Shown one piece after another: positions 7,860 to 38,049 of a DNA stretch of 64,000 nucleotides. This DNA is from Thermothielavioides terrestris NRRL 8126 (lineage: Eukaryota; Ascomycota; Sordariomycetes; Sordariales; Chaetomiaceae). The notes beneath the pieces are model-generated. The model ran no database searches and was not told where the DNA came from. It saw only the letters and a list, made by a program, of their open reading frames with translations. The stretch covers positions 8,990,001-9,054,000 of the forward strand of contig NC_016457.1 of NCBI RefSeq assembly GCF_000226115.1, read 5' to 3'. The translations under genes and the position numbers were made by a program. Position 1 is the stretch's first letter, and the number at the start of each line of letters is the position of its first letter.

Positions 7860-8453
7860 TGTTAGGAGCGGGGGCTCTTAGAAGGAAGGGGGTATACATT
7901 GAAGTGACGGAGTATAAACAAGGCATAAGCAGAGCACGCGCTATAGGGTAGCTATAGGTAGGGGGGGTACAGGTAGTTGCATTGAACGCTAGCCTCTCTC
8001 ACTGCCTATAGGTTCTATCCTCTTTATCTCTCCTATCCTAGCCCTCGATCTTCCTCCGTATCGGCTAGCCTCTATTCCCAAGCTCGCAGATCCTTTCCTA
8101 GGCCATCCTATAGCGCCTATATAGCTCCCTAAGTGCGCCCAATCCGCTCTGTTGCCGACCTAATATCTCAGTTCCCCGCACTTGCTTAGCCTAATGCCCT
8201 GCACTTCGCTTAGCTCTATGCCCCTCCGATCGCTCCTCCGGGTAGCTCGCGTAATCTAGGCTACTAACGTACACCTTAGTAGTGTATATAGATGACCTAT
8301 ATAGTGCCCTATAGTTAGCTAGGCTACGCTAGGTACTAGATATAAGGCGAGGTAGTTGGGCTAAGGGTTATGCCAAGTACTGAGGCGCGTTCTAAGGGCT
8401 ATACTAGGTACCAAGGCGGGTCTTACGAGTTAGGGTGGTTCTAGGGTATAATA
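7860..8453 (-). repeat. Gypsy-A 3' LTR (left copy)
   Basis: 594 bp, aligned end to end with 37401-37994. Differences are mostly C-to-T or G-to-A. It is much more AT-shifted in its second half than its partner. Confidence 0.93.
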
Positions 8454-9588
8454 GGGCTCTCCTCCTTTAAGGTCCTTAACTCTAAGGACTGCTATGCTAT
8501 AGCTTAAAGGGCATAGCGATCACGCTTTAGGTCGTAGCCTTATATACCTAGTGGCGGACTATATAACGGTAGTTCGGGTGGCGTATACGCGGCTTACGAT
8601 CTTGCTATACACGTAGTTCCTATCGATTACGCTTTAGCTCGTAGCCTAGCCTGCTAGTGGCAAATTGCATAGCAGTAGTTTAGGTAGCGTATACGCGGCT
8701 TACGATCTTGCTATATACATAGTTCCTATCGATCGCGCTATAGCCTATAGCCTAGCCTGCCAGTGGTAGATCGCGTAGCGGTAGTTTAGGTAGTGTATAC
8801 ACGGTTTACGATCTTCTTATATACGTAGCCTCTATCGATCTAACTATTCCTCTATATATACGATCTAGGGCGGCCTAGATAGAAGTAGCCTATTCAGATC
8901 TAAGGCTGCCTATTTAGGGCCTATTTAGGCCTAAAATAGGAAGGTAACAATAGAGCTAAATAGAACTAAATAGAAAATGTATATATTTAGGGTAATAGTA
9001 GGAAAGAAAAAGGGGTAAGGAGCATATACTATATATATCCTAAGCGCCTTCGCTATATATATAGAAAAGGGGAATTAAAACTTCTACTAGAACATCGCGA
9101 TATAAGAAATATAGGATTTAAGCCCTTTAAGCTTAGACTACCTTACTAAGTATATCTTCTAGGCTTATAGCTCCTAGCTTTCCTTTCCTCCTTTTCTTCC
9201 TTTGCGCTATCTTTATAAGTGCCTAACCTACCTAAGTGCCTAGCCTATTACAACGACAATACGATACTAGCCTACGATTACAATTGCGTATATACCCTCT
9301 ACTTCCTCCTAACGCTCCCTCTGATCGTATACGTATAGCTAACTTCTTCGCTCTATAGATAATTCGTTTTTTAGCGCTCCTACCTTCGCCTCTCCTTGGT
9401 AGGTCGCCCTACAATAGTTTAGTCGATTAGTAGGATAGCTCTCGATCGATAGAATAGCTCTAGCGATTCTAGTGTATAAGGGCTATATAGCTAACGAACT
9501 CGCTATATAGCTAGTAGGAAGAATATAATAGTACACTAACAATATAGTAGATTCAAATAACTTATTTATTTCTAGCTATACCTTGTAA
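8454..9588. other. Gypsy-A 3' untranslated-like region
   Basis: This lies between the left LTR and the start of the plus-strand frame. It contains a local repeated motif: a segment with GTAGTTYRGGTRGYGTATACRCGG and CTTGCTATAYACGTAGTTCCTATCGAT recurs near 8560-8630, 8660-8735 and 8770-8830. No coding sequence is supported. Confidence 0.5.
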
Positions 9589-10644
9589 ATGACCTTTAAC
9601 ACTAAGATGTTGATAGATAGTGTAGGGCAGACGTTACTAATACACTAGGTAGAAGTAATTATATCAAAGTTGTTCTCGAGCCTAGGCTTCTAGCCTATCA
9701 ACGTAGCGCTTAAAGAGCGCCCTACTAGTAAGGCGGAGTTGCCCGCCAACAACGTGCCTATAGCTCCTATAGAGTATACGTCTAGCGTAACGGCTACGCC
9801 TACTAACAACAACGAGAAGGAGGAGAAGAAAGAGGAAGACAAGGACGAAGAGATAGAGGAATCTAAGCCTCCAACTCTATATAAAAGCGGCTTTGGCTAT
9901 AAGAGAAGGGCGGTATATAGAGAGGGTATAGATAGGGAGCAATATAATCGTTAACAGTGTAGCAGTCTAGTGACCTTGACTCGACGCCTAAAAAGAGAGT
10001 CTCTATAGGTGCTACCTACATTATTCTATAAGTGTAGAGAGCGTAATCGAAGCGTATCAGAGGTATAGGCTATATATATACTAACAATAGTAGCTACCGC
10101 TGTTGTATAGCTAAGTTTTTCGACAATAATAGCGCCCTCGTCTACTACTATTAAGCTAGTATATATCTATATATAGGTTGTATATTCGTTGCGTCTAATA
10201 TATTTATAGGTTCTAGTTTATACTATATCGAGTATACGTAAAATAACTATATTTGCCTAGCTATAAGTTGCCCTCCTCCTTTAAAGGCGCTAACCTTAGC
10301 GCTTTAAAGCCGAAACCTACGTTTTTATTACGTATATATTACGCTATTGCTAATCCCTCTAAAAAAATGAAGATTTATCCTATTGCCTTCGCTATAGTTT
10401 ATAGCTTTATTGAAGCCCTTGACAAAAGGGACTACCCTACCGTCGATAAAAAGGTAAGTTTTTAAATGTCTCCCCTATATACGTAATATATATACTAAGC
10501 GCGTTCTAGCTAGCTATGCTTATCTAGAGTATCGTCGATATACTTATAGTAGCTTGCAAGGCCATTAGCGGTGCCCTAGTCGCCTCTACCGCCCGCTTTA
10601 AGAACTTCTTAGAGTAGTAGAGGGAGGTATAGAAGGCGAAGGGT
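9589..10644 (+). pseudogene. Gypsy-A antisense reading frame, first part (before the Gypsy-B insertion)
   Basis: On the strand opposite to pol, an ATG at 9589 opens a frame that runs to 9954 with only two internal stops (TAG, both at plausible Trp/Gln positions). It includes an acidic Glu/Lys/Asp-rich stretch (EKEEKKEEDKDEE). Coding-like sequence continues: an open frame at 10253-10465, a clear donor GTAAGT at 10454 with a TACTAAG branch-like site, an acceptor about 10509-10513, then a frame (...ASTARFKNFLE...) that reaches the Gypsy-B target site at 10644. It resumes in phase at 18334. No domain is recognised. It is not a shadow of pol, whose minus-strand modules end near 18.8 kb. Confidence 0.6.
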
Positions 10645-10916
10645 TGTAACGTACTAGCCTTATAGCGTCTACAGATAAGCGTACGATGTTCTATTCAACT
10701 ACCTTAAGGAAGGAAAAAGGAGAAGTACAGGCTACGGTCCCTGCGTATAGAGTTTTTCAGGGGCTCGCGAAATAGGTTCGGACCGACGTTATTCTAGGCG
10801 CGAGGCGGGCCCGCTATAGGTCCGTCCCGGGGCCGCCGTAGATCCGTCCTAGGGCCGCCACGGATCCTAGGCGTAGCCCCTATATACTTAGCCTAGGTAT
10901 AGCCTAGTCCGTAATA
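10645..10916 (-). repeat. Gypsy-B 3' LTR (left copy)
   Basis: 272 bp, collinear with 18057-18328. It shows more C-to-T and G-to-A changes than the right copy, but keeps a GC-rich core with repeated GTCC..GGGCCGCC modules. Confidence 0.95.
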
Positions 10917-11636
10917 TACCCCCCCCGCCCCATTGGGTAGCTGAATTAGAGTATACGTAACGTCGTATTGAGCGTAGTTCAGGTCTAGCGTAGCGCTGGT
11001 TGTAATAGACGCTAGTACCTACTATCCAATTATATAGCGTTTACCTCGCTATTAGGGTGGTTTAGCGTAGTTGCCTATTAAGGCCTTGCCGCTTATAGCC
11101 GTCCTATTGCCTAAGCTTGAGTTGCTTGTTTATATCGCCTAGTAAGCTGCTAATTGGCTCTTCCTCGCTTTATACATTTGTATATCGCAACTACGTTGTA
11201 CCGAGTGTACCTACTGATTATATACGATCCAACCTTGTCCATTGTCATTTAAACCCCTCCTTCTATACAACTTGACTTTCTTATATTTTCTTCCTATACT
11301 TAACGTATACCTCCCCTTCCTCCTCTATAATCCGTTCTTCCCTCTTTTTACGTAGTAACATCGTTCTCCCTATTCCGCTTCGTATATATTTCTTTTCTTT
11401 TACGCTTCTACCTTACGTCTACCTATATCTTTAAGTACGCTACTCGTTACCGCCTTAGCTCCTATAAGAGTCTCTTCGTCCCCCCTCTCGATAGTGATAT
11501 AGTTTCGAAACTCGCCTACCACGTTCGTGTATAGGAACGCTAAAATGTTAGTCGCCGCTACTACTCTTGAAGGTAGTGGCGTAGGCCACTGTCCTAGTGG
11601 CGACGATAACGAAGACTATAATGTAAATACTTCTAG
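10917..11636. other. Gypsy-B 3' untranslated-like region
   Basis: This starts with the polypurine tract (C/G run at 10919-10929) and holds a pyrimidine-rich plus strand (about 11220-11480) that could be the leader of the plus-strand frame. A short open segment begins at the ATG near 11544 but in a different phase from the long frame, so a spliced or shifted start is possible. Confidence 0.4.
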
Positions 11637-13094
11637 GACGACTCTACTATAGACCTAAGTCGCTTGTTAACTACGACATTATAGAACTAAAATAATCGCT
11701 AGAAGAACGATAAGCTATTAATCGATAGGTTTATTATCGAAGGAGATTCCAACGATAAAGAAAATGAACTACTCTTTGACAAAAGAGAGTTCTATATACA
11801 ATGTATCGCTTACCTTCTTAGTAGCACTAAGGTCGAATATACCCCTAGTTATAGTAAATTTTATAAAGAATATTAGAGGGCCTATATTATATATAAGTAG
11901 GACTTTGTATTATAGGCAATAAACCCTTGCCTTTGGTCTAGTCTAAAGAAAATCCTTAAGGTATACAATATAGGCTAGGCTATTGAGACCCTAGCCTAAA
12001 AGAAGATAAGCTTATAGCTTGTTCGTTGTATAGTCCTTAAATATAAATTCTAGAAGCTAATATAGTTTTTTTAGACCACTTTTAACAATGTATAGACGTA
12101 TTATATCCTTGTTTAGCCGATACTACTCCCTCTATCTACTACTAAGCGGACCTCGATTTACATTGTCCCCTAGACCTTAGTCGCCTTTCTCACTATACCG
12201 AGCTGCTATAGGGCTTTAGTGCCCTATAATCCACTTACCTCTTCTCTAGACCGCTTCACCTAGCTAGCTACCTATCTAACTTATTGTTTAATAAGTAACG
12301 AAGAAGCCTATTAGCGCAATATACGCTATCTAGTCGACGCTATTACAATAGTCGTTAATACTAATAACCGTCTTATCGACTACGTTTTAAGCTCGCTATA
12401 ATCTAGCCCTTCTCTACAAGGTAGCTATAGTACGACTTCTACTAGGTACGATATTGCCTTAGTTCCCTTCGTCCTATGTCCCTAGCACCGTCTATCCTCT
12501 CCCTTTGAGAACCTCGCCTACGTCTTTTGGGAATACGCTAATCCCCTACCCTAGACCCTTAGTAGGTCTAATAGATAGCCGATTATAGAGGTACTCTCGT
12601 TGTTTAACGAGGGTGTCGAGCACCTACCTACTAGCGATATAGTACTATCTAGAGACAAAGAGGCTATAGAGTAGGGCTAGAAATAGCTCTGTCCTCTACT
12701 ATAGCCCTACTCTCGCTTTATCCTATACCTCGACCTATTATCGAACTAACCTACTAACTAGAGTAGTTATAGTAACTTTGATATTTGCCCCTACCCTACC
12801 TTAGAGATCTCGGAGTAGGTGATATATCGGCTACCGACCTTGCCTCCCTTTAGCTTATATCTAGGTATTCCGCGGTACTGTAGGATTGACGGTAGGGTAA
12901 GGCTAGAGGACTACCTATATCTAAGGAAAGAGACCTAATTAACGTGTCGAGGCCTCCCTATATTTGTATTTTTCTTATCGTTCTTTTATAATAAGGCCGT
13001 AGCCGGATATATCGGGGTGACTATATGCCTAGTAGTACTATCGAGCTATATTCGTTTTATCGTTGTTGTTTCTTATAGGGTAGTCTATATATGA
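11637..13094 (+). pseudogene. Gypsy-B antisense reading frame, about 486 codons
   Basis: One uninterrupted phase on the plus strand runs from 11637 to a TGA at 13092-13094. Roughly thirty internal stops occur; every one I read is TAG or TAA and none is TGA, which fits RIP damage of Trp/Gln codons in a real protein-coding strand. The reading has normal mixed composition, with a Ser/Pro/Tyr-rich centre. It ends in a hydrophobic stretch (about 12960-13090) that could be one or two membrane segments. It lies between pol and the 3' LTR and faces the pol 3' end, which lies about 60 bp away near 13150. The true N-terminus is uncertain. I recognise no family. Confidence 0.65.
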
Positions 13095-13129
13095 ACATTA
13101 CGTTTTCCTTTCCTTCTTCGGTTCGACGT

Positions 13130-16100
13130 CGGCTCGTCGTTGTATTATATATCTCCCTATTCCTATTCAAACTCGTCGAGTATAGTAGTATCTAAGAAGT
13201 TCTCTAGGGGCTCCTACGTTAGTTTGTTGTAATCTACCTACTTAATATATACGTTATAGTTATTTCCTCTCTCTTTAGCGTTCTAAGCTTTAAAGATCGC
13301 CTCTACCCTATATTCCTACTAAGGAATACCCTCTTTCGACATAACCTATACAGGGTCTAGCCGTTTATCCGTAACTTTCTACAAAGGGAGTAGATCGGAG
13401 GCTATTTACTCGACTAGATCGATATAGAAGGTTGGATATAAACCACTTAATACATTAAACGTTACTATTAAAGGGATAGGTACTACGACTACCTTATATT
13501 TAGCATTTAGCTAGTCGAGTTTCTTACTAAGGCGGTTCGTCTTTATATTGTATAGAGAGAGCTATACCTCGTCCCCTACCTTGAACCTCTTAGCTAGGTG
13601 GCAAGAGCGGTTCGCATTTGCCTACTACCGCTACTATATATATACGATAGCTACTTAGGTCTACTCTATTCCTTCTTTTAGATAGTGGAGGAACTTAGTA
13701 GCGTAGCCCTCTAGGGTCGCTATAGACGTCGTCGAGATCGTGATAAGTTGTATAGGGCTTATATTAAACCTATAGAGGAGGTAGTTTGGGCTTACCCTAG
13801 TTATAGATAAGTCTTTGTTGTTAAATGCGAATTAGTAGGCTAGAAGGTGTTTAGGCTAGTCGTACTATATAAAGGAGACGAAGATCTAGAGGATAATCTA
13901 TACCTCTTAGTTGATCTACTCTGTTCCCCTATTCGTCTAGGGATAGTGAGAAGTCGATAGAAGCTACTCTACCTCTACCGCTTTATATAGCGTAGTCTAG
14001 AACCTACTTAACTAGTCTAAACCGCAATCGGTTATAATTTGAGTTAGAAACCTATAGAAGCGCTATTATACGTTATAGAACCAAAGGGTATACTCTTCTA
14101 CTCTTATCGAGTATATCGCCTTAAGCTATATATACTTAGAGAGATGGTCGGTAATTACTATAAGGTAGCTAGGCGCCCCCTTGTCTTTCGTAGAGAAGTC
14201 GGTTATAAAGTCAATGGAGATCTGCTTTTAGAAGCGATTAGGGATAGGCAAAGGTTGTAAAAGCCCTTGACGTAGCTGCTAGAAGATTTTACTTCGGCAG
14301 CACTAGTTACAGTTCCTAATGAACCGTTTTATATTGGATAATATAAAGTCCTAGTAGTAATCTCTCTAGAGTATTTTGAATAGCCTATTGTACCCTAGGT
14401 ATCTTGATATAACTAAGTTATAGATTTGCTAGATAATTATAGTAGTTAGGGGCTCCTATATAGAGAGCTAGAGACGGCTATAGAACTAGAGCGCGCCTTA
14501 TACGTTGAAGGAGTAGTCTACGATCTAGGTTTATACTATATTCACCTCTTTTAGAAACTTCTAAGCTTCGTTGTAAATGGCCTAGAGCCGGTAAACGTAG
14601 TGCTCGTCTCCGACAATACCCTTGTCTTATAGGGCTACGAGCTACTTATCTTTGAAGAGCGTCTCTCTTATAGACAACCTAGCCTCCTCCTATATACTAG
14701 TCTAGTATACCTTGATCGGAGGGAATAGCTAAGCGATACACTAGCTATCTTTAAGCTCGTTTTGTTTATACTAAGAGAATATATTAAAGTACAAGGCCTA
14801 GGATCCTAGCTAGTACTTTAGCTTAAAGTTGAATAAGGAGAACGTCTTCGCCTATTAGGCCTACTGTTCACTGATCGGACGTAGCTAGGTAAAGTACTTA
14901 AGGTTCTTATAGTCGGTTAGGATAGTAAAGGGGGCCACTATACTCCAAAGCTCCGCTAACTAGGCCTTGAGATACGAGATAATAGCTAATAGCTCTTTGT
15001 TATAGATAGTATAGTTATACTTAGTAAAGCTTAGTTTTATAGAGTAGTAGGCTATAGGGTAAAGAACCCTGTCCTCTCTCTATTAAGACAAATATCTACT
15101 AAGTACTATACTAGAATAGTCCGCTTCTACGATCGTCTCTCTCTTAGGATCCTATTAGGCAAGGATCAGCTCTAATATAAACGTGGCCTTAAGCGTATCG
15201 AAGGCGTCCTACTCCTCTTTGCCCTAGTAGAAGGGGATGTTCTTATAGGTAAAGCGTATTAATAAGGCTACCTTCTTAAAGAAGTTGAGGATAAAGTTAC
15301 GATAGAAATTAGCGAATCCTAGGAAGCTCTATACTCTTCGAACTTTATAAGATACCTTCTATTTATAGATAGCTTTAATCTTTTTGGGGTTAGAGCGAAT
15401 ATAAACCTCTATCTTTATAATATACCCTAAGTACTTAACTTCCTTTATTATAAATATATATTTCTTAAGGTCTAGGTTGAGGCCTACGTCCCTTAGTCTT
15501 CGGAGGACCTTGTATACCTTCTTTATATAGTCCTTTCAACTCTTGTTCAAATATACTAAGACGTTGTTAAGGTATACTATTATATAGTCTCCTAGCGTTA
15601 GACCAAGGGCGTTGTTAATATATCTTTAGAACGTCGTAGGAGTATCTACGAGCCTAAAGGGGTAGACTAGCTATTCGAATAGTCTAAACCTTATATAAAA
15701 CGCTATAAGGTACTCGTCCCCTTTAGCTATCTAGATATAGTAGAACGTAGCTCTAACGTCTAGCTTTGTAAGCCATTTAGCCCTAGCTAAGGACCAAAGA
15801 GTCTCCTTAATTAGAGGGAATAGGTACTAGTCCTACTTAGTGATCTTGTTTAGGGCTCGATAATCTATATAGAACCTCTATCCTCCTTCTAGCTTCTTTA
15901 TAAAGAGGACTAGGGCAGCTATCGATAAGGAGTTTACCTAAATCTATCCTTTATCTAATAGGTCTACGACCTATTTCCGAATCTCTAAGAGATAGTCCCT
16001 TAGTATATTATATAAGGGTCTCTATAGGAGCTTAGGAAGTTTTCTATCTAGGCTTGTCTTAAGACGGATATAATAGTCGGCCTCCCCCCGATAGGGGGGG

Positions 16101-17960: not shown

Positions 17961-18056
17961 CCGGCCCGCTCGATGCCAGTGTCGAAACGCCCAATATGCT
18001 GCTCTCGTCTATACCTAAAAGTAATAGCTGCTCTATCTATATAAAGGTAGTTGAAC

Positions 18057-18328
18057 TGTAATGTACTGGCCTTATAGCGTCTATAGATAAGCGTACGATG
18101 TTCTATTCAACTACCTTAAGGAAGGAAAAAGGAGAAGTATAGGCTGCGGTCCCTACGTATAGAGTTTTTCAGGGGCTCGCGAAGTGGGTTCGGACCGATG
18201 TTATTCCGGGCGCGAGGCGGGCCCACCATAGGTCCGTCCCGGGGCCGCCGTGGATCCGTCCCGGGGCCGCCGCGGATCCTGGGCGCAGCCCCCACATACC
18301 TAGCCCGGGTACAGCCCGGTCCGTAACA
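18057..18328 (-). repeat. Gypsy-B 5' LTR (right copy)
   Basis: 272 bp partner of 10645-10916. The part from about 18180 to 18328 keeps intact CpG- and CpA-containing GC-rich sequence and looks far less mutated than the left copy. In element orientation it is followed by GTTCAACTACC as the putative primer-binding position. Confidence 0.95.
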
Positions 18329-18333
18329 AGGGT

Positions 18334-18700
18334 ATACTAAAGAGGCGCCTCCAGCGTTTCGTTAGCGTATCTACGCTGCTCTTACCTCCTCCCCCTCCTT
18401 TTAGCACTACGCTAGAGGAGGTAGTAGAGAGGCTAGCTAAGTTAGAGGAGTAGTAGAAGTGTATAGAGGGGGTAGTAGTAAGTCTATAAGTCCGTTGTAT
18501 CTATAAAGCGTATATATAGCTAATAATCAAAGAACGAAATTTTAGTGGTAGTAAAGAGCTAGGGTTCGCTACTAGAAGAGGGTAAGGAGGGGGAGAGGGG
18601 TAGCGAGGAGGGCGCTAATAACATATAGGTAGATAAGTTTATAACAGAGTCGATCTAGGGCTTAGAGAAGGACTTAGCGATATAGGGGGTAACTATTAGG
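18334..18700 (+). pseudogene. Gypsy-A antisense reading frame, second part (after the Gypsy-B insertion)
   Basis: If Gypsy-B and one AGGGT copy are removed, the frame ...AAGGGT|ATACTAAAG... continues in phase from the first part. It reads KRRLQRFVSVSTLLLPPPPP and a helical Glu/Leu-rich stretch ending near 18470. A GTAAGT donor near 18478 and a CTAAT..AAAG end near 18530 would be an intron. A second open stretch rich in Glu and Gly (SLLEEGKEGERGSEEG) follows to about 18700, with only TAG interruptions. It may form a coiled coil. It faces the Gypsy-A pol 3' end. No family is recognised. Confidence 0.6.
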
Positions 18701-18859
18701 TAGGTAGGTAGTTCTTATATTGTTTTTTCTTTTTCCTTTTCTTTCCTTTTTTCTTTAATTAAAGCGCTGCTTAGCGCCTTCGTTGCGTTCCCGCCGCTTA
18801 TCGCCTATGCCTATACTTATCTTAAATATATACTTTATAAGCGTATAGTAAAGGCCTAT

Positions 18860-20626
18860 TATCAATATACTTATATAGCTCCTAGGTGTTCTCTTCTAAT
18901 AGGTAGTTCTTCTATTTAATAAGGAAATACCTGTCGAGAGGTAGCCTTATATAATTAAGAATAGCTTCGACCTCCTAATGCTACTCCTATATAACGACCT
19001 ATATACGATCGTGGTATATAAGCGCTTCCTACAAGTTGCCATTAAATAGCTCGAGCATTGCAATAGAGAAAATAGGGTGGAACTTGAACGTAGGTAGGAG
19101 ATCTAAGCGATATACTATCTTCTTGCTGCCTACGTTAGCGATAATTTTAAATAGCCTAAGATATTTATTTGCGAATTTACTGTTTAGACGTCGCTAGCAA
19201 ATATACCTTAAATCGACCTAAACTTACTAGCCAACTCTGAAGGTTATAGGCGTACGTTTACAGTTATACTACTTTATATAACTTTCGTTGGCTTGTACTA
19301 AGGCCTTGTAGATTCTTTCCTAATCTTTAGCGAGCTTCCTAGTACGCTCCTCTATAGCAAGAACGTTGCTTAAGCTATTTATAAGTGGGTCTACTGGATT
19401 ATATAGGTAGTAGCTGTAAAGGAGGTATACTAGGGTCGCCTTTATAGCCAAATACATTGAGGTATTGTAAGTATATTCGGCTAGAGCTAACTTCTATACC
19501 TAGTTATACTACTTCTATATATAGTAAATACGTAGGTAATGCTCTAACGCCTAATTCTGCTTCTCTGTCTAGCCGTTAGTCTAAGGATAGTATATAGTAC
19601 TTAGCTTTTATATAATATCTAAGAGGTCGTAGAGTGTATACTAAAACCTGCTTATAAACAAGCTCTTGCGGTTAGAAACAATAGTCTATAGTAGGCCAAA
19701 TGGTCGGTAGACGTAATCGAAGAAGAGGTGGGCAAAGGCGCTAGCCTAGAGCTGTTTGTACGTCGTAATATAGAGAGTGTACTTAGTAAACTTGTCGACA
19801 ATGACGAGGACAGCGTTATAGGGCTTGTATATATAGGGGTCGATAGAGGTAGGTAGGCCAATGACGAAGTCGACTATAATATCCTGCTATAGGCGCTTAG
19901 GAACTAGCAATGCTACGAGCTTGCTATAAGGGCGGTAGGTTCTTGCTTTTATATAGCTATATATAACGTATTCTACTATATATTGATCGATCTCCCTACG
20001 TATATATAGCCAGTAGTAGTAGCGTATTAGACGTTTATAAGTCTTCCTAATGCTACTATAGCTACCTATTATAGCGTTGTAGTAGTATGTTAAAAGTGTA
20101 TACCGTAGGGCTATAAGCATATAGATCCTACTACTATAACGTAGGATGCTATTATCGCTACACTTCTATTGCCTACGTATATAAGCTGTCTTCTAAGCGC
20201 CCTTAGTCACCTAGGGATTAACTTCCTATACCTAGATTAGTTGCTGCTTAAAAAGCTAGCCTTCGTCCTCTACCGGCTTCCTAGCAGTAGTAGCGACGTA
20301 TAGACGGTGATTAGGCGTATATACATTGCTAGCTAGACTACTATAGGCCGTCTAGTCCAAGGGGGGTCGCCGCCTAGGCCCTAGGTAGCTAGATTCCCTT
20401 GCATATATTTTCTAGGCCTCTAGGGAGCTACGCTCTAACGGCGGTTTACTAGGTCCATCTAGGCCGTAGATAGCACTTCTGTCTATACCGTGGTTGACTA
20501 GTGGAAAAGCGTTATCTAGGCGAAGCCTCTACGCTGCTACCTCTCCCCTATCCCTAGCTATAGGCTTACGGTGACGCTTGCCACTACCTATGCGCTATGA
20601 GACCTCTCGATTACCCTGTTCGAGGC
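18860..20626 (-). pseudogene. Gypsy-A integrase and chromodomain relic
   Basis: Minus strand, right to left: an H2C2-type zinc-binding region at 19887-20120 (TYKRLIRYYYWLYIRREID, with Cys lost), then the integrase core with VIVDKFTKYTLYI at about 19760-19810 and a block near 19670-19700 reading VSNRKSLF, where Asp of the catalytic D,D,E triad is expected (Asn seen). TEKQN keeps the Glu. A chromodomain at 18880-18976 reads EVEAILNYIRL...LIK*KNYL with TAG at a conserved Trp. The upstream continuation of the protein is at 33546 and beyond, across Gypsy-C. Confidence 0.85.
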
Positions 20627-20630
20627 GTAT

Positions 20631-21118
20631 TAAAATGGTACAAAACCTCTATATCAACTTACCCTACTATACCTAGGACTAGGCGTGTAAGATAGCTCCT
20701 AAAGGAATATAGTGTTCCTCTGGACGAACGAAGATAGTGCGTATTGAATAGTAGGAAGAATGTCTCCTAAAAGGAAGACACGTAGCTCAGATATATCTAG
20801 TAGGATATAGTAGAAAGATAAAAAGACAATAAGAATATAGTTAGAGCTCAATAGCTCGAATACCTACTGTCTAGACAGAGGTAGAACAACGAAAGGAGAG
20901 GCTCAATAGCCTTCCTAGAAGAAGGAGGGCTACCAACGTAGTGTCAACGAATATATCTTAACAACTGTTTAATGTCTTGCTTAATAACGAAGAAGATAGG
21001 CTTAGCCTACTTAAATATATATAATCAGAGGGCTAGACCCCCTAGCAACGAATATAATGCACTAAAACGATTAGAAAAACTAGGTCCCTATATCTAGGTA
21101 GTCTATTACCCTAATTCA
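20631..21118 (-). repeat. Gypsy-C 3' LTR (left copy)
   Basis: 488 bp, collinear with 33054-33541; the differences are predominantly transitions. It contains an internal repeat of the form CAATAGCYYTCCTAG / CAATAGCTCGAATACC. Confidence 0.93.
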
Positions 21119-21399
21119 CACTTCCCTTTCAAGTTTGCTATACACTCCTATAGGCAAGCTCGTACCTTAAAAGCTCTCTAGTGTACACCTTTCATCGTCG
21201 CTACTCTTTGAGCTACTCTCTACGTATAGCTCTCTTAGCTCGTAAAGGCCTAGCTAGCTATAGTAGCTAATCATATCGTCTTTTGTACTCCTCTACTTCC
21301 TTAATATATATATCCTATCCTTGCTACTATACTAGATACTTATACTTATAGACGAAGGCGCGGTCGTATAAGTTATATAGTAGTAGACGAAGTAGCCGT

Positions 21400-23420: not shown

Positions 23421-23839
23421 AAAGATCTAGACTGATTAAAGCGATTGTAAGAAAATCCAAAGTATAGTAGGTAAGGCAAAAGAAATGGTTGATTATAAGC
23501 GACCTAGCGAGAGGATTAAGAAAAGGGGTAGGCAAGCCTTTAAAGGCAAAAGAGCTACTTAGCTCTTTCCTAATCTAGGCAAAAGAAAACGGATAAGGCC
23601 TATAGCGCCCACTAATTAGCTAAAGATAGGCTAGAAAAGAGTGTCCGCCTCCTAAATTCTTAAGGCCTTCCTCTCCTCTTTACTATCCTAGAACTATTTC
23701 CTTCCTCCAACCTTTTCACCACCTTATTCTAGTACCCTTGTCTCTCTAGGCAGATTAGGTTCTTAGTAGTCGAGTCTTCTACTTCCCTTTCGAATTTATA
23801 TATAGCTCCTATATACGAATTCGCAACCTAAAAACTAAG

Positions 23840-25315
23840 ATGTCGAACAACTAATATACCTACAATGTCTTATAGGAAATCACTAATAAAGTAGACGACT
23901 AGAGGCTATTATTATATAGGATTATAAACCGCTAGATCAATCTTTTACTAATGCTAAAAATAAATATTTTTATAGCCTAGAAGTACGTCTAGGTAGTCTA
24001 GAGCAAGATAAGGGATCCGCTAATACTAAAAGATAAACGCTATACTAACGAGTATACTATAATCTTAGTTGAATATAAGGCTATCTACAATATAATTAAG
24101 ATCTTCCGACTAAACGTTAGGCTACTATACGTCTAATAGGTCTTACTAAGCAACTAGCAAAATTAGTATAGGATATAGCGATCGGTTTATATCGACGATA
24201 GGCTAGTTAATATAATTGAATAGTACTATAATACCTTAGTCCTTCGTCTAGTGTATATAGAGCACTATAATAGTAGACCGCTTAGGCGTTGGATATACTA
24301 TCTCGCTATATACCTAAACTAAGCTTCGGCTCTCTTAATCTAAGTATAGGGTTATAAGTAAGTACTACGCTTCCCTTTTATACTTGCCTTCTAGATAAAG
24401 GAAGACTAACACTCTTATAGCAACAAAGTTCTTTGTTAAAGCTACGAACTATTGTACCGACGTTCGATAACTCCTTTTAACGAAGATAGGGATGTCTACG
24501 TAACTTGGCCCTTTAATAGCTACGCTTCTTTTACTCCTCTCTTTGCCAATAAGTATACTAACTATATCTAGTTAAAGAAGGAATACACTTAGACTTATAT
24601 CTATAAGAATAATTAGAAGTACCTAGCTTAGGACTTGATCTTATAGGGCTATCTCCTATATAATCTAAGGAATAATCCTAGGTTAAAGCTATATCTAGAA
24701 GAAGTAGGCTAAAAGTGGCTTGTCTTACTAGAGGATACTATTAAAGAGCAGATAGCATAGTACTAGGCCAACTATAAGACCTTGTACTATTAAAGGACAA
24801 AGACAATAGACAGGGATAGGTAGGGGGTAGGATATAGTCTAGAAGCTTAGCCTATAGATAGTAGATTAAAAGACTATATACTCTAATCGTAGATTTTTCT
24901 TAGCCTTGACTTTAGCTCTAAGAAACTTAGTCTTATATAATAGAAACTATCTATCTAGAGGGTAGAAGTAAAAAGAAAAAGGTATAAATAACTATAAGGC
25001 CCCTAAGAGTAGAGTTACCCTTTAGAAGGAAAACTTAGGTACTAGCGAGAAAGAATAAGGTCCTAAAGGCTAAAAACGAGCAAAGGACAGTGGATAGACG
25101 AAGACTAAGTGAGATATAGCTAACGGAGATATTACTAGTAAGTAGAAGGCTAATATAACAATAAGTATTAGAAAGGAAATATAGCTAAACGCCAGTAAAA
25201 CTATTAGAGGTAGTAGCTTCTACGCCTTCCCCCCTTTCTAGAATGTACGTCCTTATACGTCTAGAGGGCTAGTGTTAAAAACCAGGTAGTTTTCTATAGG
25301 GGATTTCGACGATAA
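23840..25315 (+). pseudogene. Gypsy-C antisense reading frame, 492 codons
   Basis: A single phase on the plus strand opens with ATG at 23840 and ends with TAA at 25313-25315. Its many internal stops are only TAG and TAA, as for a RIP-damaged gene read on its true coding strand. The N-terminal half is Ile/Leu/Tyr-rich with helical character; the C-terminal third is Lys/Arg/Gln-rich (for example EVKRKRYK). It is tail-to-tail with pol: the minus-strand pol frame ends at about 25325, or about 25275 if a RIP-type stop is discounted, so the two 3' ends abut or overlap by some 40 bp. It is head-to-head with the Ulp1-like region. No family is recognised. Confidence 0.65.
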
Positions 25316-28300
25316 GCTCCTAACGAGGTTGCTCCTTCTTTACCCTCTTTATAGTCGAGCGAGTCTAGCTAGCCTAAGGCGCTATAGTACAACTAGAGGT
25401 TTCCTCCTCGAGAACCTCCTCCTCAACTACAATTATAACGTCTTCTATACCGTCCTCTCTTAGCGTCCTATCGTTGTAATCGCTTATACTATAGACTTCG
25501 TTATAACCTAGAACTACAACGCTATTGTAGAGAAGCCTATTTAGGTGATTAGTGTAGCTACCTAGGCTAGTAAAGATATAGGCGTAGTCTCCCTTTGCCT
25601 AGTCGAGGCTAGTACTATCGGCAACACTATATTCCCCTTCGCTATTGTCGGTAGATATCGAGTAATATATATTTATAGAATCTACGCCTTTGCTACAATT
25701 ATCGCCACTGTTAGTAGCTCCTAAGTAACTAGCATTTATAGAATCCTACTCCTCGTCGCTATAGCCCTTGTTGCTAACCTCGTCGTAGTGCCTACCGTTA
25801 TAGCGCTCCTCTCTACGATAGAACAGGGCTAGCCTATCTACTTCTAGCTAGACGTTATCTAGCTTAAAGAATTTCTTTATATAGTTTAGAGGATATAGCA
25901 TCTAGATAGGTATATCGTCTAGGGTCTCTAGGAAGTAAGTGTTCTAGTCTTTAATTATCTAAATATAGAATAGGCCGAACTAACGGTACTCTAGCTTCCG
26001 AACTAAGCTTATATCTAGCTAGTATATATTGTTATAGACGAGGACGAGATTACTAATAGATATAACTATATTTTTAGGGTGAAATTTACGTTTATAGGCC
26101 TTATTATAGCGTTTAGCTATCTTTTTATAAGCTATAGCAACCTATTTGGTGGCAATCTTGTAATTATACTCTACTTTCTAGAGGATATAGGTATAGAGGG
26201 CAATGAGCTTTATATAGACTTTTATAGAATCTTCCTCCTCTAACTAGGTATAGACAGAGTCTTAGGTAAGAATTCGCTATATAGGAACATTAAACTCGAC
26301 TAGACTAATAGGCTTATAATTATAAGTAAGAAAGAAGGGAGATATTCTATAAGAGCCCTTGACGGTTATACGATCTATATATAAGATATATAGAAGGAGC
26401 TCCCTCTACCTCTTTCCTATACTATTAGTCATCTTTATAAGCAAGGTAGTAATCGGGATATAGCTAGCCTTATTTATACTATTCGTATACGAATTATATA
26501 GCGAGATAATGACTCTCTTAATGCCTAGTTTACAAAGGATCTCCTTAACTTCGCTTTTAAATTTAGAGCCTTCGTCAACAACTATAACTATAGGGTAACC
26601 CTAACAACAAAGGATATACTACAAGATAAAGGACTTAATAGACTTAAAGGACTTATTCGATAGGATCTTAGCTTCGATATATCCTATAAGATCGTTGTAA
26701 GCTTCGATAAAGAAATACTTCTTTTCCCTATAGCTAGACGATATATATTAGATATTGAAGTGCTATTTAGTAAAAGGAAAAGGTAGAGGCGCTATCTAAC
26801 CTACTACTTCCTTAAACCTCTAAGCATTATACGTTTAATATAGGGTATAAGCCTAAATCTAGTTCGCTATATCCTTGTATATACTACGCTAGTAGTAGTA
26901 GTTCGTTATTCGTTAGTACGTTAGCTCCCTCCTACAATAGCCAACCTCATTATAATACCAATCGAAGATTAAACGCCTCTCCTTAGGGGTATCAACGATA
27001 TACCTATAATACTATATATAATTCGTACTTTGGAAAAAAAGGTGACGATCTTCGACAAAGTACTTCAACGCTTCCCTTTTAAGCTAACGTCGCTTCTAAT
27101 ATAGACTATAGCTAGACGAAGCTTCTATCGTCGATAAGAAATAGGCGATGTCCTAGGAACGCTAGAAGTAATTATCTCGAAGGCAGATAGGTTCTAGCTT
27201 CCCTTCTAGATATAAAGTCTCTTCATTTATATAATTGACAAAGATTTGGGCATTGACCTAGTCGTCAATATTCTTCTCCGACTCCTTCTCTATATAGTTA
27301 GAGGGCTTAGGCAGCTTATAGGATAATATATTGGCTATAACGTTTTTAGGACCTAGGATATACTTAACTTCGAAGTCGAATAGGCAAATCTAAGCAATCT
27401 AGTACATTATAAAAGTACTTAGAACATCGCTTATAGCACTATTAAGCTAATAGACTAGAACTAGAGTATTAGTCTCTATAGTAAAATATATATTAAAGAG
27501 GTAGTAGCGAAAACGCTTTAGAAGGAAGAGTAGCCCCCTTAGCTCTCTCTTTGTAGTATTATACTACTTCTCTACCTCTAACTAGATACCGCTTTTGAAC
27601 CTATATAAGTATCTCTTACTATCGGGACCAACCTACTCGAATATACCTCCTTAATCGAGGATACTAGTGTTGTAAACTAGGAAGATTATACTATACTATA
27701 GATCGCTATAGACGAGCGTCGTAAGAACTAGAGTAGTAGTGATTTTCTCCTTTAGCTCGTCTATCGCCTTCTATTTAATAGGCCCCTAAGTCCACTTAGT
27801 ATCCTTCTTTATTAGGGCGTAAAGAGGAATCGCAATGATTGTAAAGCCCTTAATCTAGATCTAGTAGTATCCGACTATTCCAACGAAGATATATACTTCC
27901 TTAACGTTAGAATAGGTCTTCTACTCTTTTATTTTAATCACCTTCGCTTTCTTAGAAAGGCGTTCGTCAGATATACAAAGATAACTAAGTAGGACCGCTT
28001 TCGGCTACGCCTTCTTCGACTTTACTATAACGATAGTCGTACCTATTAGCTTTATATTTAGCAACACTATATTAATATTCTTAAGATACTCGACAACAAA
28101 TTTGCGATATCTCCCTCTATCTAGATGGCTATTATAATTAGATCGAGGACCTTTTACTATAATATTATCTAGGTAGACTCGATAGACATTTAGGATAAGG
28201 TTACCAAAGATCGTTGTTATAGCCCTTTAGAACTAGGCAACGGAATTTATATCTCTTATCGGTAGTATATATATATAGAAGAGACTGATCGACGTTGAAA

Positions 28301-31300
28301 AGGTCGTTAAATCGTAGCTCTACTTATCGAGATTGACCTAGTTGTAATTAGAGAAGAGATCTAAGAGAGATATTAGCTTATAGCTATTAAAGTCCTTATT
28401 AAATTCCTCTATAGTAGGTAGGACGAAAGCGTTGTAGATCATTATAGTATTAGCCTTTTAAGTATTATTGATAAGCTATAATCTACTGTCCTTCTTAAAA
28501 ACAAAGAACTAGTTATTATAGTAGCTTGTATAACTATACTCGATAATCCTATATATTTACCTCTCTCTAAGTAGATTAATGACCTTCTATATTAGTAGCT
28601 TTGGAATTGGAATAGACTTACTTTGCTAAGCCTTATATAGGATAATCTTAATATACTAGGGTAGGACAATATCCTTATAGATACGTCTATACTTAGTAAA
28701 ATCCTATATAAACGTAGCTTTCTAGTTTTATAAGATCTTAGTAAACATCTCCTTTTCTAGTTTATTAAAGAAACTATCTATAGTAGCGAGTATCGTTTAA
28801 AAGCGTTCCTCGGTAAGCCTTAAGCCTAGTTTAAGATCTAAGAAATAGGGGACTATAAGATTGTTCTATTCCTTCTCGAACTGTATCTTTGCCTTAGCCT
28901 TTGTAAACTACTTCTCTTACTACAATAGGTCTCCTTCTAGCGTAGAGCTATCTAATAGTACTAAATCGACTAGTCGAACCTTATTTATAATATTCTTCTA
29001 GAGCGTAAACGTCTTTAAGGTACGTCTAACCTTATACTTAAACCCCTGCCTTAGTCTCTAGTTGGAAAAGGGGTTTCTAATTAGGGTCCCCCTCTTCTCT
29101 TTTGAATAGGACAACAATTCGATCTTCGTCTATCTAGATAGAGAAGATAAAGAATAAGAATATATAACGTAAAAAAGAGTATTAAAGAGAGGTATATAAG
29201 ACTTCTATAAAACGAAATAAAAAACCGCTTTACCTATATTATTGTCGAGGAAACTAAGAGCAGTCTCGCCTTCCTCTATCTCTACCTAGTCAAAAATTCT
29301 TTTAGAACTCTTCGTCAATCCCTAGAATTATTCCTAGACGGCTAGTTATATTAGAGATAATAGACGATTCTACTAAGCAATCTTCTTAGAGACAATATAT
29401 ACCTAGACTATCTTTCCTTCTATAAGTAGATTGGCAATAATTAAATTGCTATTGCGATAATCGAAGGTTAGAGCGGTATCCTTGACGAATAGTATACCAA
29501 GGATTGCTTTATATCTACTAATAATATCCTTGGTTATAAAGAAGTGAAGGTTAATACCGACTCCGCCTAAGTAAAGAGTGGCCTAGGTCTCTTTAAAGAA
29601 TAGTGCTAAACTATAAAGACCCTTCGAAATGACCTTAGTAGACTAGTATAGTAGTATATACTTCTCGACGATGTTTATTAAGATACAATTGTACTTTGAA
29701 CTAGAGTCGATTAAAGTAAGATACTTGTTATAATAACCTTTCTTAAACTAGATATATAAAGTAGGAAGCGACTATACTCTTATTATTATATCGAGTTCTA
29801 TATATTATAAGACTAAAAGCGTTGAAATAGACTTCTATAATAAAGTATAGATACGATCGTCAATATCTCTAGGTAAACCTTTATAAATCTAATACTCCTA
29901 GAGGCTTCCTATATAGATGCCCTATATACTATTTTTAATAACTCTAAAGATCGTTAGAACTGTTTTAGTCTAACTAGAGCGAGGACTATCAAGTGTATTT
30001 ACATTAGTATATAGAGCCTATATATAGACCCCTATATCTTTCGGTATAGTAGCTAGTCCATTAGGCTTAAGAACACTAGACCCTTTATAGTCGATAACCT
30101 CGACATTAGTAGAAATGCCCTATAGGTATACGATCAAAGCGTCCTTGTACTTAGACGAAATATAAACTAAATCGTCAAGGGTTAGACCGGTCTTCGCCTT
30201 TATCGTAGTATAGATTATATCCTTTATATATAAAGGCAATGTAGCAACCTTTGGTATAGGTGGCTTAGACTATAGCTCCTCCTTCTTCGTATAATTCGCT
30301 ATAGCTAGGTTCTTAAAGATAGTTATATAAGGAGGCTCTACTAGAGGTATAAGAGTACTACCTATCTAGAAGTTATCTTCCCTTTCGTCCTTAGCGAACT
30401 AACGTTTAGTAGGCGGTATACCTTGAAGTATAGTCTCTACTTCCTCGTCCACTTCCTCTTTAGCTTCCCCCTTAGTCTAGTCAAAGAGAGGAAAAGGCAA
30501 TTGGCGAAATTCGTTAGCCTTTAGTATAAGCTATAGGACAACCTTCTAAGTTAAGATACGACCTCCCTTTGACAGAACTATATAAAACGACAACTAATTA
30601 GATGCTATATAATAGAAAATAGAGGTAAGCTTAGGCTCCCCTTTATATATAAGACGATTGATTGTTGTCTAGACGGTTATAGGCTCCTAATACAGCTTAG
30701 GCTACTAGAGGTAGTACTTATTTAGTACTAGAGATATATCTAGCTTAAATAGGCAACTATTTAGATACTTGTATTTACAATAGTACACTTAGTATATAGG
30801 GTAGCTATTATACTATAGGCAATAGGCTACGTATATAAAGATAAGCTAACTAATCTTACTAACCTCTTATATACTATCGATATCTATTTTTGTAAAGGTA
30901 ATTGTCTTAGCTAGCGTATAGCCTTTCTTACTCCTATCGTTAAAGCAGTAGTCTATACTTTTATAATATATTAGACCTATAGCTATAGCTTTTATAGCTT
31001 CTATATACTCGAGGACTATATAGTTAGAGTCACTGCAATAGTAGCAATAGCTAGAGCTTATAGGTCTACTATAGCTAGGAGGACGACTATCAATATATAG
31101 GCTAGTAACAAAGCTAATATATCTCTCCTATAAGCGGCTCTACTATTAGAAATACGTTTAGAGAACTTTAATCTCGTTAGAAGTAGGATCGATTCTATAT
31201 AAATAGAAGGCTTTAATCTTCTATTTGAACTGCTTAATGATCTTCTACTTCTAGATATATAGACGTTAGAGCTAATTAGCTAGATCGTCAATATCGTCGA

Positions 31301-32600: not shown

Positions 32601-33053
32601 CTTAACTATTTTTGTAATTAGTTCGGCTAGACCAGAGAAGAAAATGATAATCAATGAAAATTCTACCTCTATCTCTACTTAGGAGGATAGAACTATCGTC
32701 TTTCGATTAGGTTAGCGTTTTACAACTACTACGTCGATAATAACGAAGCCTCAATAGGTCTTCGAAGTATTAGGGATAACAAGATATCTTTTTAATACCT
32801 TACACCGTCTAGGCAAAGGAAGATCTCCTAGGACAAGGTCTCAATAGACCCCCGGAATATATACGTTTTAATAGGTTTCTACGCCTCCTAAAGATACTAG
32901 TATCGGTGTACTAGAGCCTCAATAGGTCGGCCTTGTCGTCGTTGTATAGCTATCAATATAGTATCGTATAGTTCTATAATCTTAGAAGACTTTATAGTCT
33001 ATACTGTCCCATTTAAATATAGAGCTAAGCTCCTCTTTAATTAAGCCCCTATT

Positions 33054-33541
33054 TAAAATAGTGTAAAACCTCTATACTAACCTACTCTACTATACCTAGG
33101 ACTAGGTACGCGAGATAGCTCCTAAAGGAATATAATGTTCCTTTAGATAGACGAAGATAGTGTATATCGAGTAGTGGGAAGAATGTCTCCTAAAAGGAAG
33201 ATACGTAGCTCAGATACGTTTAGTGGGATATAGTAAAAAGATAAAAAAACAATAAGAATATAGTTAGAGCTCAATAGCTCGAATACCTATCGTCTAAACA
33301 GAGGTAGAACAACAAAAGGAGAGGCTCAATAGCCTTCCTAGAAGAAAGAAGGCTACCAACGTAGTGTCAACAAATATATCTTAACAACTATTTAATGTCT
33401 TGCTTAATGACGAAGAAGATGGGCTTAGCCTATTTAAATATATATGATTAGAGGGCTAGACCCCCTAGCAACGAATGCAATGCACTAAAACGATTAGAAA
33501 AACTAGGTCCCTATATCTAGGTAGTCCATCACCCTAATTCA
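33054..33541 (-). repeat. Gypsy-C 5' LTR (right copy)
   Basis: 488 bp partner of 20631-21118. It retains somewhat more CpA/TpG sites in places (for example GAATGCAATGCAC versus GAATATAATGCAC). Confidence 0.93.
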
Positions 33542-33545
33542 GTAT

Positions 33546-36500: not shown

Positions 36501-37300
36501 GAGATAGAAGTTAGGATTAGCCTCCTATTCCTAAATATATTTTACTTAGGCGTTCTTAGGCGGGCCTTGGAGGCAACTTACTATATATATAACGTAGTCG
36601 CTACTATTGAGTAAGTAGCCTATAAGCTAGAAGTTAGTATAGTAGTTGTATAGAAAGGCCTAGAGCAAAGAAGTATCTTTACTACTATATATAGGGTGGT
36701 TTAAGCTAGTAGTACGTTAGAGGGGAGCTCCTATAGCGCTAGGAAGGATTAGTAAAGGCGTAATAGGAGCATTAAACTTAGGATTAGTAATAGGTAAAGA
36801 GGTATTAAAGGTAATAGACATAGCTATAGGTATAGCTATAGATATAGGCGTAGGTATAGCGGCTATAGACGTAGCTTTAAGCGTGGCAATAGGCGTAGAA
36901 GCGGGTATAGGAGTAGGTATAGGTATAGGTATAGCAATAGATATAGCTAGTATAGTAGTATTAGTGGCCTAGGTAGCAAGAGGGTCGGAATTCGAAGAAG
37001 TAGCGCCTTTAGTAATATATATAAGCTAGGCATTTTAACGTAGAAGCTACGTATATTAAGCTCGTAGTTAGAGAATAGCTTGATAATAGCGCTTAAGAGC
37101 GATCTTAGCGCTTAAACGACGTTCTTCCTCAATAAGATCGTGCTCCTAGGTAGAGAGTAGGGGGTCGATAGGTACTACGTAGAAGCCATTTAGATCAATC
37201 TAGGTATATTAGGAGCTTTCGCCTATAGTAGCGTTAGGCGTAGGCGGTATAGAGAGGGTATATAAAGAGGTTAGATCGGTAGAAAGTGCCTAAGATTATA
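33546..37300 (-). pseudogene. Gypsy-A gag-pol relic (5' part)
   Basis: Minus strand from right to left. The gag region (about 37.2-35.6 kb) has a low-complexity GGTATAGGTATAG tract near 36815-36955 and two zinc-knuckle remnants: F-T-Y-S-R-E-G-Y-R-Y-T-N-C near 36015-36075, and Y-R-H-I-G-Y-T-A-I-R-C near 35765-35810, with Cys/His codons turned to Tyr. RT: PISASILFVLKKGGELRL at about 34858-34920, and the active-site box IVYLDNILIFS at about 34533-34570 with Asn for the second Asp. RNase H and a linker follow down to the Gypsy-C insertion at 33545, ending ...EFNKSVAPNI. The protein resumes at 20626. Confidence 0.85.
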
Positions 37301-37400
37301 AGGGTATAGGGCTTTACTTGAGCGTAGCGTAGGCGTAGGTCTAGGCTATAGCTCGTCTCCGCTAGTTCAACTCCCTAGGGTAGGATAAGAGCGTTCAACT

Positions 37401-37994
37401 TGTTAAGAGTAAGAGCTCCTAGAAGGAAGGGGGTATACGTTGAAGTGACGGAGTATAAGCAAGGTATAAGTAGAGTATATACTATAAGGTAGCTATAGGT
37501 AGGGGGGGTATAGGTAGTTGCATTGAACGCTAGCCTCTCTTATTGCCTATAGGTTCTATCCTCTTTATCTCTCCTATCCTAGCCCTCGATCTTCCTCCGT
37601 ATCGGCTAGCCTCTATTCTCGAGCTCGTAGATCCTTTCCTAGGCCATCCTATAGCGCCTATATAGCTCTCTAAGTACACCTAATCCGCTTTGTTGCCGAC
37701 CTAATGTCTCAGTTCCCTGTACTTGCTTAGCCTAATGCCCTGCACTTCGCTTAGCTCTATGCCCCTCCAATCGCTCCTCTAAGTGGCTCGTATAATCCAG
37801 GCTACTGACGTACGCCCTAGTGGCGTACGTAGATAACCTGCGTAGTGCCCTGTGGTTGGCTAGGCTGCGCTAGGTGCCGGATACAGGGCGAGGTGGTCGG
37901 GCCAAGGGTTGTGCTAGGTGCCGAGGCGCGTTCCGAGGGCTGTGCCGAGTGCCGAGGCGGGTCCCGCGGGTTAGGGTGGTTCCAGGGCATGACA
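37401..37994 (-). repeat. Gypsy-A 5' LTR (right copy)
   Basis: 594 bp partner of 7860-8453. Its right half (about 37790-37990) is conspicuously GC-rich and looks nearly unmutated beside the RIP-altered left copy. It ends CATGACA followed by the AGCTA duplication. Confidence 0.93.
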
Positions 37995-38049
37995 AGCTAT
38001 CAATTATTACGAAGTTCCTTAAAGTTGAAAGTAGTATTAGGGATATAAG

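What the first reader, a model, noticed from the sequence alone, without database searches (positions are those of the whole stretch)
7860..37994. Three separate Gypsy elements share the same gag-pol / antisense-gene tail-to-tail plan
A, B and C differ in LTR length (594, 272, 488 bp), LTR sequence and pol sequence, yet each has a plus-strand gene-like frame between pol and the 3' LTR. Convergent or ancestral retention in three elements suggests a functional module: an accessory protein, a regulator made from an antisense promoter near the 3' LTR, or a source of double-stranded RNA. I know of no standard description of this in fungal Gypsy elements.
Basis: inference. Interest (0 to 1): 0.88.

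Follow-up and report, generated by a model that had tools for sequence, protein, structure and literature searches.

The report
Antisense spliced genes in fungal retrotransposons
Three nested, mutation-silenced retrotransposons in a fungal chromosome appear to share an extra gene on the opposite strand between pol and the last repeat, well supported as an intron-containing protein gene in two of them, and in one lineage that gene block has been swapped as a unit.

Summary
The window is a RIP-mutated nest in Thermothielavioides terrestris: Gypsy element A contains B and C. The shared plan (gag-pol on minus, extra gene on plus, tail to tail between pol and 3' LTR) is well supported in A and B and probable in C. 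No frame is open in the window itself.

A: five less-mutated relatives elsewhere carry a seven-exon antisense gene (353 aa by one intron choice) ending about 115 bp from the pol stop. B: a two-exon gene (443 codons). A sister element, L076, has nearly the same pol (14 transversions in 3000 bp) but an antisense protein only 33% identical, with the intron in the same place and transversions concentrated at third codon positions (79/65/122). That shows codon-level constraint and replacement of the block as a cassette. C: codon statistics support a plus-strand gene and, beside it, a second extra gene in sense orientation, perhaps a C48-type protease.

All three show a Cx2Cx6C motif (in C only column by column), but homology among A, B and C is not shown. 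The plan is not new: Boty elements of Botrytis carry antisense brtn, and plant Retand/Grande elements are similar. New here are the many introns and the cassette swap. Function (nuclear regulator) is inferred.

The parts
37401..37994 (-). 5' LTR of element A
   Evidence: direct repeat
7860..8453 (-). 3' LTR of element A
   Evidence: direct repeat; TSD AGCTA on both sides
18798..20629 (-). A pol, integrase part up to its stop (about 18.8 kb)
   Evidence: Integrase_H2C2 and SH3_Tf2-1 (the second below its cut-off); stop placed by alignment to L039
33866..34886 (-). A pol, RT and RNase H
   Evidence: RVT_1 E 3.8e-19, RT_RNaseH_2 E 2.6e-22
9607..10644 (+). A antisense gene, exons 1-5 and first part of exon 6 (9607-9912, 9966-10027, 10094-10158, 10210-10262, about 10310-10453 or a later start, 10510-10644)
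   Evidence: exon model in natural copy L039, mapped to the window; codon model calls + frame 1 at 9654-10103
18334..18685 (+). A antisense gene, rest of exon 6 (to 18477) and exon 7 (18533-18685), beyond the B insertion
   Evidence: codon model + frame 2 at 18480
10645..10916 (-). 3' LTR of element B
18057..18328 (-). 5' LTR of element B
13093..15901 (-). B pol from RT to its end (about 13.1 kb, approximate)
   Evidence: RVT_1 E 4.3e-16, RT_RNaseH_2 E 1.5e-16, Integrase_H2C2 E 4.8e-4 below its cut-off; end by eye in L076
11545..11622 (+). B antisense gene, exon 1
   Evidence: L032 model
11623..11684 (+). B antisense intron (GTAAGT, CTAAC, TAG in L032)
   Evidence: signals kept by eye in 29 further rows apart from RIP-type changes; intron at the same place in L076
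11685..12938 (+). B antisense gene, exon 2 with Cx2Cx6C motif
20630..21118 (-). 3' LTR of element C
33053..33541 (-). 5' LTR of element C
27440..28406 (-). C RT and RNase H region
   Evidence: RT_RNaseH_2 E 3.5e-5, RVT_1 E 0.0048, below Pfam cut-offs
23650..24830 (+). C probable antisense gene, + frame 2 (limits approximate)
   Evidence: codon model; weak stretch 24100-24400; some copies shift frame further on
24554..24586 (+). C antisense gene, columns of the Cx2Cx6C motif
   Evidence: Cys in 10, 3 and 3 of 27 rows at the three columns, otherwise Tyr; no row has all three
21269..23218 (-). C second extra gene, sense orientation, C48/Ulp1-like by motif spacing only
   Evidence: codon model; motif near 22.72 kb read by eye; no Pfam or PDB support

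Best explanation
A and B are RIP-killed Ty3/Gypsy elements, and C is an element with the same layout. Each carried, between pol and the 3' LTR, its own protein gene on the opposite strand, running from near the 3' LTR towards pol and ending tail to tail with it. Shown: exon-intron structure of the sequence in A and B, and codon-level constraint in B. Inferred: the gene has its own promoter beside the 3' LTR and makes a spliced antisense mRNA from the integrated copy. The opposite-strand position lets its introns (and presumably its poly(A) site) pass through retrotransposition untouched, because they are not splice or poly(A) signals in the genomic RNA. The product is a small protein with a Cys cluster, and in A also with basic and acidic stretches. 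I infer it to be a nuclear regulator of the element (of its transcription, silencing or integration). Shown in the B lineage: the pol-to-LTR block exists in two diverged versions beside almost the same pol, so it has been exchanged as a cassette.
For: A: five copies have an open 1324-codon frame with RT and the same antisense exon hits with equal scores. Two of them (L039, L040) were compared and are identical over 3016 bp; neither passes the RIP indices. L039 splices into one frame of seven exons with GT-AG introns (four of the five fixed introns with a CTRAY branch site), ending about 115 bp before the pol stop. A spliced-frame search scored 936 on the antisense strand and 327 on the sense strand; 1 of 200 shuffles reached 936. 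The two LTRs of one such copy are identical over 594 bp. B: codon model trained on the other two elements calls one plus frame over 8 successive windows, 0 of 300 shuffles as long. Against L076: pol 14 transversions in 3000 bp; antisense protein 102 of 309 identical, 266 transversions by codon position 79/65/122 (p 4.8e-5). In the first 148 codons, compared without gaps, 30/27/60, and the antisense frame has the highest identity of six frames. The intron is at the same position, 62 and 63 nt. A genome search with the B protein finds the second type at 27-36% identity, E down to 7e-34. Pol of the three other second-type copies read differs from window B by 19, 17 and 2 transversions in about 2930-2950 bp (L077, L078, L079). 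C: codon model run sum reached by 0 of 300 shuffles, run length by 2 of 300. A Cx2Cx6C motif is visible in A, in B copy L032 and column by column in C.
Against: No transcript, splice-junction or protein data. No relative outside this species was found for A or B: the only database hit is a T. terrestris gene model for A, none for B; C's protein was not searched there. C has no diverged relative among 91 matches, its transversion test is not significant (4/7/10, p 0.12), and stops are not rarer in the called frame than in others. B against its close sisters is only borderline (6/2/10, p 0.04). In window A the codon model's run length is ordinary (130 of 300 shuffles reach it), only the summed score is rare (1 of 300); the splice search preferred another start codon, and three choices of the intron-4 end keep the frame open. 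The LTR side of second-type copies differs from B by 3.2-5.4% transversions, more than pol does, so the exchanged block may reach into the LTR. Nuclear role and zinc binding rest on motifs read by eye; Pfam finds no domain above its cut-off.
Confidence: 0.75

Rival explanations
1. Coding-shadow or RIP artefact: the plus frames only look gene-like because pol and RIP bias the stop pattern of the other strand.
For: No frame is open in the window; fixed-stop counts do not single out the called frames; the codon model missed the right pol frame in 9 of 83 windows.
Against: The frames do not overlap pol; A copies with an open pol frame have the spliced antisense frame; B against L076 shows third-position excess and protein-level homology; three LTR stretches give no positive windows.
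Confidence: 0.04
2. The block acts as RNA: antisense transcription makes double-stranded RNA or silences the element in cis, and the protein is secondary or a relic.
For: An antisense transcript overlapping the 3' part could have this effect; suggested in print for plant elements (PMC7264820, passages).
Against: Codon-level constraint and a kept intron position in B are not needed for an RNA role. Small RNAs were not testable here.
Confidence: 0.12
3. Passenger: a convergent host gene was captured with its introns by read-through, and it does nothing for the element.
For: Introns in the antisense gene fit capture from genomic DNA; a non-RIPped A-like relic lies elsewhere (L085).
Against: A module is present in each of the nine B-type and second-type copies compared, and it is constrained at codons. 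Of the two non-A hits, one is that relic and the other lies in an F-box gene, so no intact host homologue was seen; three partial B-like hits were not read.
Confidence: 0.15

Closest known systems
brtn of Boty-like Gypsy elements, Botrytis cinerea (Zhao et al. 2011, seen only as cited in PMC7264820, PMC8365987, PMC4227169)
   Same: Fungal Gypsy element with chromodomain and an additional gene antisense to gag-pol between pol and 3' LTR
Plant antisense aORF-3R genes: Retand (TRP28), Grande gene23, RIRE2 (PMC7264820 and PMC11963269, passages)
   Same: Same place and orientation; regulatory, DNA-binding role proposed; Retand also has tandem repeats between pol and 3' LTR
   Different: Plant families; TRP28 said to occur only in flowering plants; 'intron' and 'zinc' do not occur in the Retand paper
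HTLV-1 HBZ (recalled; named in PMC11963269 passages)
   Same: Antisense nuclear product of a retroelement; that it is spliced and regulates the sense unit is recalled
   Different: Promoter in the 3' LTR and bZIP protein (recalled), a retrovirus; no homology claimed
Antisense homing endonuclease genes with spliceosomal introns in group I introns (PMC9548176, abstract)
   Same: A mobile element keeps a spliceosomal intron in an opposite-strand gene
   Different: rDNA intron, unrelated protein; the sense gene there has an intron too
Ulp1 domains in Ginger1 and Mutator transposons (PMC2836005, passages)
   Same: Mobile elements with a C48-type protease, as suspected for C's sense gene
   Different: DNA transposons; C's gene has only a motif by eye

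Membership tests
Ty3/Gypsy LTR retrotransposon | LTR pair with 5-bp target duplication | tested here: met
   A and B exact, C equal after RIP-type changes
Ty3/Gypsy LTR retrotransposon | pol order RT-RNaseH-integrase | tested here: met
   A and B (B's integrase hit below its cut-off); for C only weak RT/RNaseH by Pfam, integrase end by eye
Chromovirus branch | C-terminal chromodomain in pol | tested here: inconclusive
   read by eye in L039 (A) and L076 (B type), motif recalled; no Pfam hit; not seen in C
Boty-type element with antisense brtn | extra gene antisense between pol and 3' LTR | tested here: met
   A, B; C probable
Boty-type element with antisense brtn | protein homologous to BRTN | not testable with these tools
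   sequence not to hand; protein searches with A and B gave no Botrytis hit
Plant Retand/TRP28 antisense genes | TRP28 domain (PF04195) | tested here: not met
   Pfam scan of A and B antisense proteins: no such hit
Fungal Zn2Cys6 cluster proteins | two CxxCx6C-type halves (recalled) and a Pfam match | tested here: not met
   only one half matches; no Pfam hit
C48 (Ulp1) peptidase, C's sense gene | PF02902 match and His-Asp-Cys triad | tested here: inconclusive
   His to Asp spacing of 17 read by eye against a recalled motif; Pfam and PDB searches empty

The most novel reading that the evidence does not exclude
The antisense gene is an exchangeable specificity cassette: related elements on one pol backbone carry diverged versions so that each regulates, or escapes regulation by, its own kind, and the opposite-strand position is kept because it shields the cassette's introns during retrotransposition.
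Probability: 0.2. Interest if true: 0.75.

Novelty: new variant of a known kind. Interest (0 to 1): 0.55.

Why it matters
Retrotransposons normally lose introns. An opposite-strand, multi-intron gene kept in five copies with an intact pol frame (one of them with identical LTRs, so recent), and swapped as a block in another lineage, suggests that some fungal Gypsy elements carry an accessory protein with its own evolutionary life. RIP and repeat pipelines may hide such genes, so the class may be under-counted. The 2011 survey of fungal LTR elements PMC3248453 has no occurrence of 'antisense' in its main text.

Tried and rejected
Counting stops fixed in all copies to find the ancestral frame failed: RIP makes the same stops in every copy, and even the pol frame is not spared. 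Homology among A, B and C proteins: hhalign probabilities 0.05-0.2 per cent, Smith-Waterman mostly not beyond shuffles; the best cases were A against C copy L048, 5 of 500 shuffles, and the L037 segment against A, 82 of 3000; other copies fail, so no claim. Of four B rows tested for the longer four-Cys pattern, only L032 has it. Database relatives outside T. terrestris: none in three searches, which need shared 5-residue words. C48 by Pfam, and a profile against PDB: nothing. Other RT families as controls: L083 has an extra frame in sense and none antisense, L084 no clear antisense frame, L082 is useless because of a nested LINE; so the plan is not universal in this genome. The two flanks used as noncoding controls turned out to look coding, so only the three LTR stretches serve as negatives. 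In the many-copy scan some windows of C's sense gene favour the mirror frame. No structure prediction was run. Literature: (listings); I found no report of a multi-intron antisense gene or of module exchange in fungal Gypsy elements in these searches of an open-licence library, which lacks the brtn paper.
Full report
Setting. The window is bases 8,990,001-9,054,000 of contig 1 of a 36.9 Mb, six-contig genome. A protein hit names the species as Thermothielavioides terrestris NRRL 8126. From 5 to 42 kb the DNA is AT-rich with strong RIP indices, and no stop-to-stop frame of 120 codons exists between 5286 and 41380. Three LTR pairs lie nested: A outside, with B and C inserted into it. Every LTR mismatch is a transition (A 83, B 28, C 47). 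Pfam finds RT, RNase H and integrase parts on the minus strand for A and B and weak RT/RNase H for C. Copies in the genome, lower bounds where only part of the candidates was scored: B 43 matches (40 of 148 candidates scored), A 35 (34 of 34), C 41 (35 of 115).

Element A. Five copies elsewhere have an open 1324-codon frame with RT and give the same antisense exon hits with equal scores. I read the 3' part of two of them, L039 and L040, which are identical over 3016 bp and do not pass the RIP indices. The window copy belongs to the same family: of 680 differences from L039 in the compared stretch, 667 are in the RIP direction, 9 are reverse transitions and 4 are transversions. In L039 the strand opposite to pol splices into one frame of seven exons and stops about 115 bp before the pol stop. 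Three ends of intron 4 keep the frame open; two of them give 353 and 332 aa. A search for the best spliced frame scored 936 on that strand against 327 on the sense strand; 200 shuffles averaged 390 and one reached 936; it chose a start 153 bases upstream of mine. One of the five copies has identical LTRs, 594 of 594 bp, so it is recent. A T. terrestris gene model, THITE_117983, is a relative of the protein (70% over 78% of the query; sequence), so annotators have already met it without naming it. In the window, B sits in exon 6 of this gene. On the window copy alone the codon model is weak evidence: summed score reached by 1 of 300 shuffles, run length by 130 of 300.

Element B. The less-mutated copy L032 shows a 26-codon exon, a 62-nt intron with GTAAGT, CTAAC and TAG, and a second exon of 417 codons and a stop, interrupted by eleven RIP-type stops (ten TAG and one TGA). 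By eye the intron signals are kept in the 29 further rows, the window included, apart from RIP-type changes. A codon model trained only on the pol frames of the other two elements (right frame best in 74 of 83 test windows) calls this frame in eight successive windows; none of 300 shuffles did as well.

The cassette. L076 is a B-type element: its pol differs from window B by 14 transversions in 3000 bp with no gaps, 10 of the 14 at third codon positions and none at second. Between pol and LTR, however, no nucleotide alignment to the window is found at E 1e-10. The opposite strand there encodes a protein 33% identical to B's (102 of 309), with the intron at the same position. RIP makes only transitions, so I counted transversions: 79, 65 and 122 at codon positions 1, 2 and 3. 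In the gap-free first 148 codons they are 30, 27 and 60, and amino-acid identity is highest in the antisense frame among six (50 of 139 against 29-44 of 131-139). The second module has at least 32 near-full copies (43 matches, 40 of 79 candidates scored). Three more second-type copies were read: their pol differs from window B by 19 (L077), 17 (L078) and only 2 (L079) transversions in about 2930-2950 bp, while their modules are of the second type. So the block has been exchanged between members sharing almost one pol. The LTR side differs more, 3.2-5.4% transversions in the second type against 0-1% in the four B-type rows with a separate LTR alignment, so one edge of the exchange may lie in or near the LTR. 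Direction, number and mechanism of the exchange are not known.

Element C. The same codon model calls plus frame 2 from about 23.65 to 24.8 kb with a weak stretch in between. Run length is reached by 2 of 300 shuffles, summed score by none. Transversions between C and its sister group do not reach significance (4/7/10). Of 91 matches to this frame in the genome, 20 end at residues 402-424 (about 25.05-25.11 kb) and 5 at 305-364, several with the rest listed as a separate match, so gene end and introns are open. Beside it lies a second extra frame, in the sense of gag-pol, from about 23.2 to 21.3 kb, called by ten successive windows (0 of 300 shuffles). It contains a His-Trp and a Phe-Asp-Ser with 17 residues from His to Asp, as I recall for Ulp1-type proteases, but no search supports this. 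I saw no intron in it.

Shared motif. A and B copy L032 show Cx2Cx6C; in C the three columns are Cys in 10, 3 and 3 of 27 rows and Tyr otherwise, and no row has all three. For one A and four B sequences, placing their Cys at random gives such a motif in 0.2-1.1% of cases; C was not tested so. I chose the motif after seeing it, and full comparisons do not support homology. It is a lead.

How it may work. Because the gene is antisense, its introns are invisible in the genomic RNA and survive transposition. Its mRNA must come from an integrated copy through a promoter near the 3' LTR. In A three 106-nt tandem repeats lie there (8548-8865). I think the most likely role is a nuclear regulator, as proposed for plant antisense genes (PMC11963269, passages). 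This step is inference.

Known or new. The layout is known in fungi (brtn, cited in PMC4227169, PMC8365987, PMC7264820; passages; a BRTN-like transcript is mentioned for Monilinia in PMC5987419) and in plants. A multi-intron structure and module exchange I did not find in my searches. Hence a new variant of a known kind.

Noticed in passing
window 38000-41499, minus strand: RIPped Mutator-like transposase (MULE, E 0.0012, below the Pfam cut-off) flanking element A, with repeats at 40708-41226 and an inverted repeat at 41537-41654/42050-42167.
   Followed up: partly
window 6650-7700, minus strand: A further RIPped coding-like frame on the other side of A, without a Pfam match.
   Followed up: partly
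window 8548-8865: Three 106-nt tandem repeats between A's 3' LTR and its antisense gene; plant Retand elements also have tandem repeats in this region (PMC11963269 passages).
   Followed up: no
L085 around 640-800: A degenerate, non-RIPped relic resembling the Cys region of the A antisense gene (one search hit, E 1.7e-5).
   Followed up: partly
L086: The weak A hit at C1:6116259 (E 7.8e-4) lies in an F-box gene (E 1.2e-5), so it is probably a chance match.
   Followed up: yes
   Followed up: no
L083: Another Gypsy family with an extra frame in sense orientation downstream of pol and no antisense frame.
   Followed up: partly
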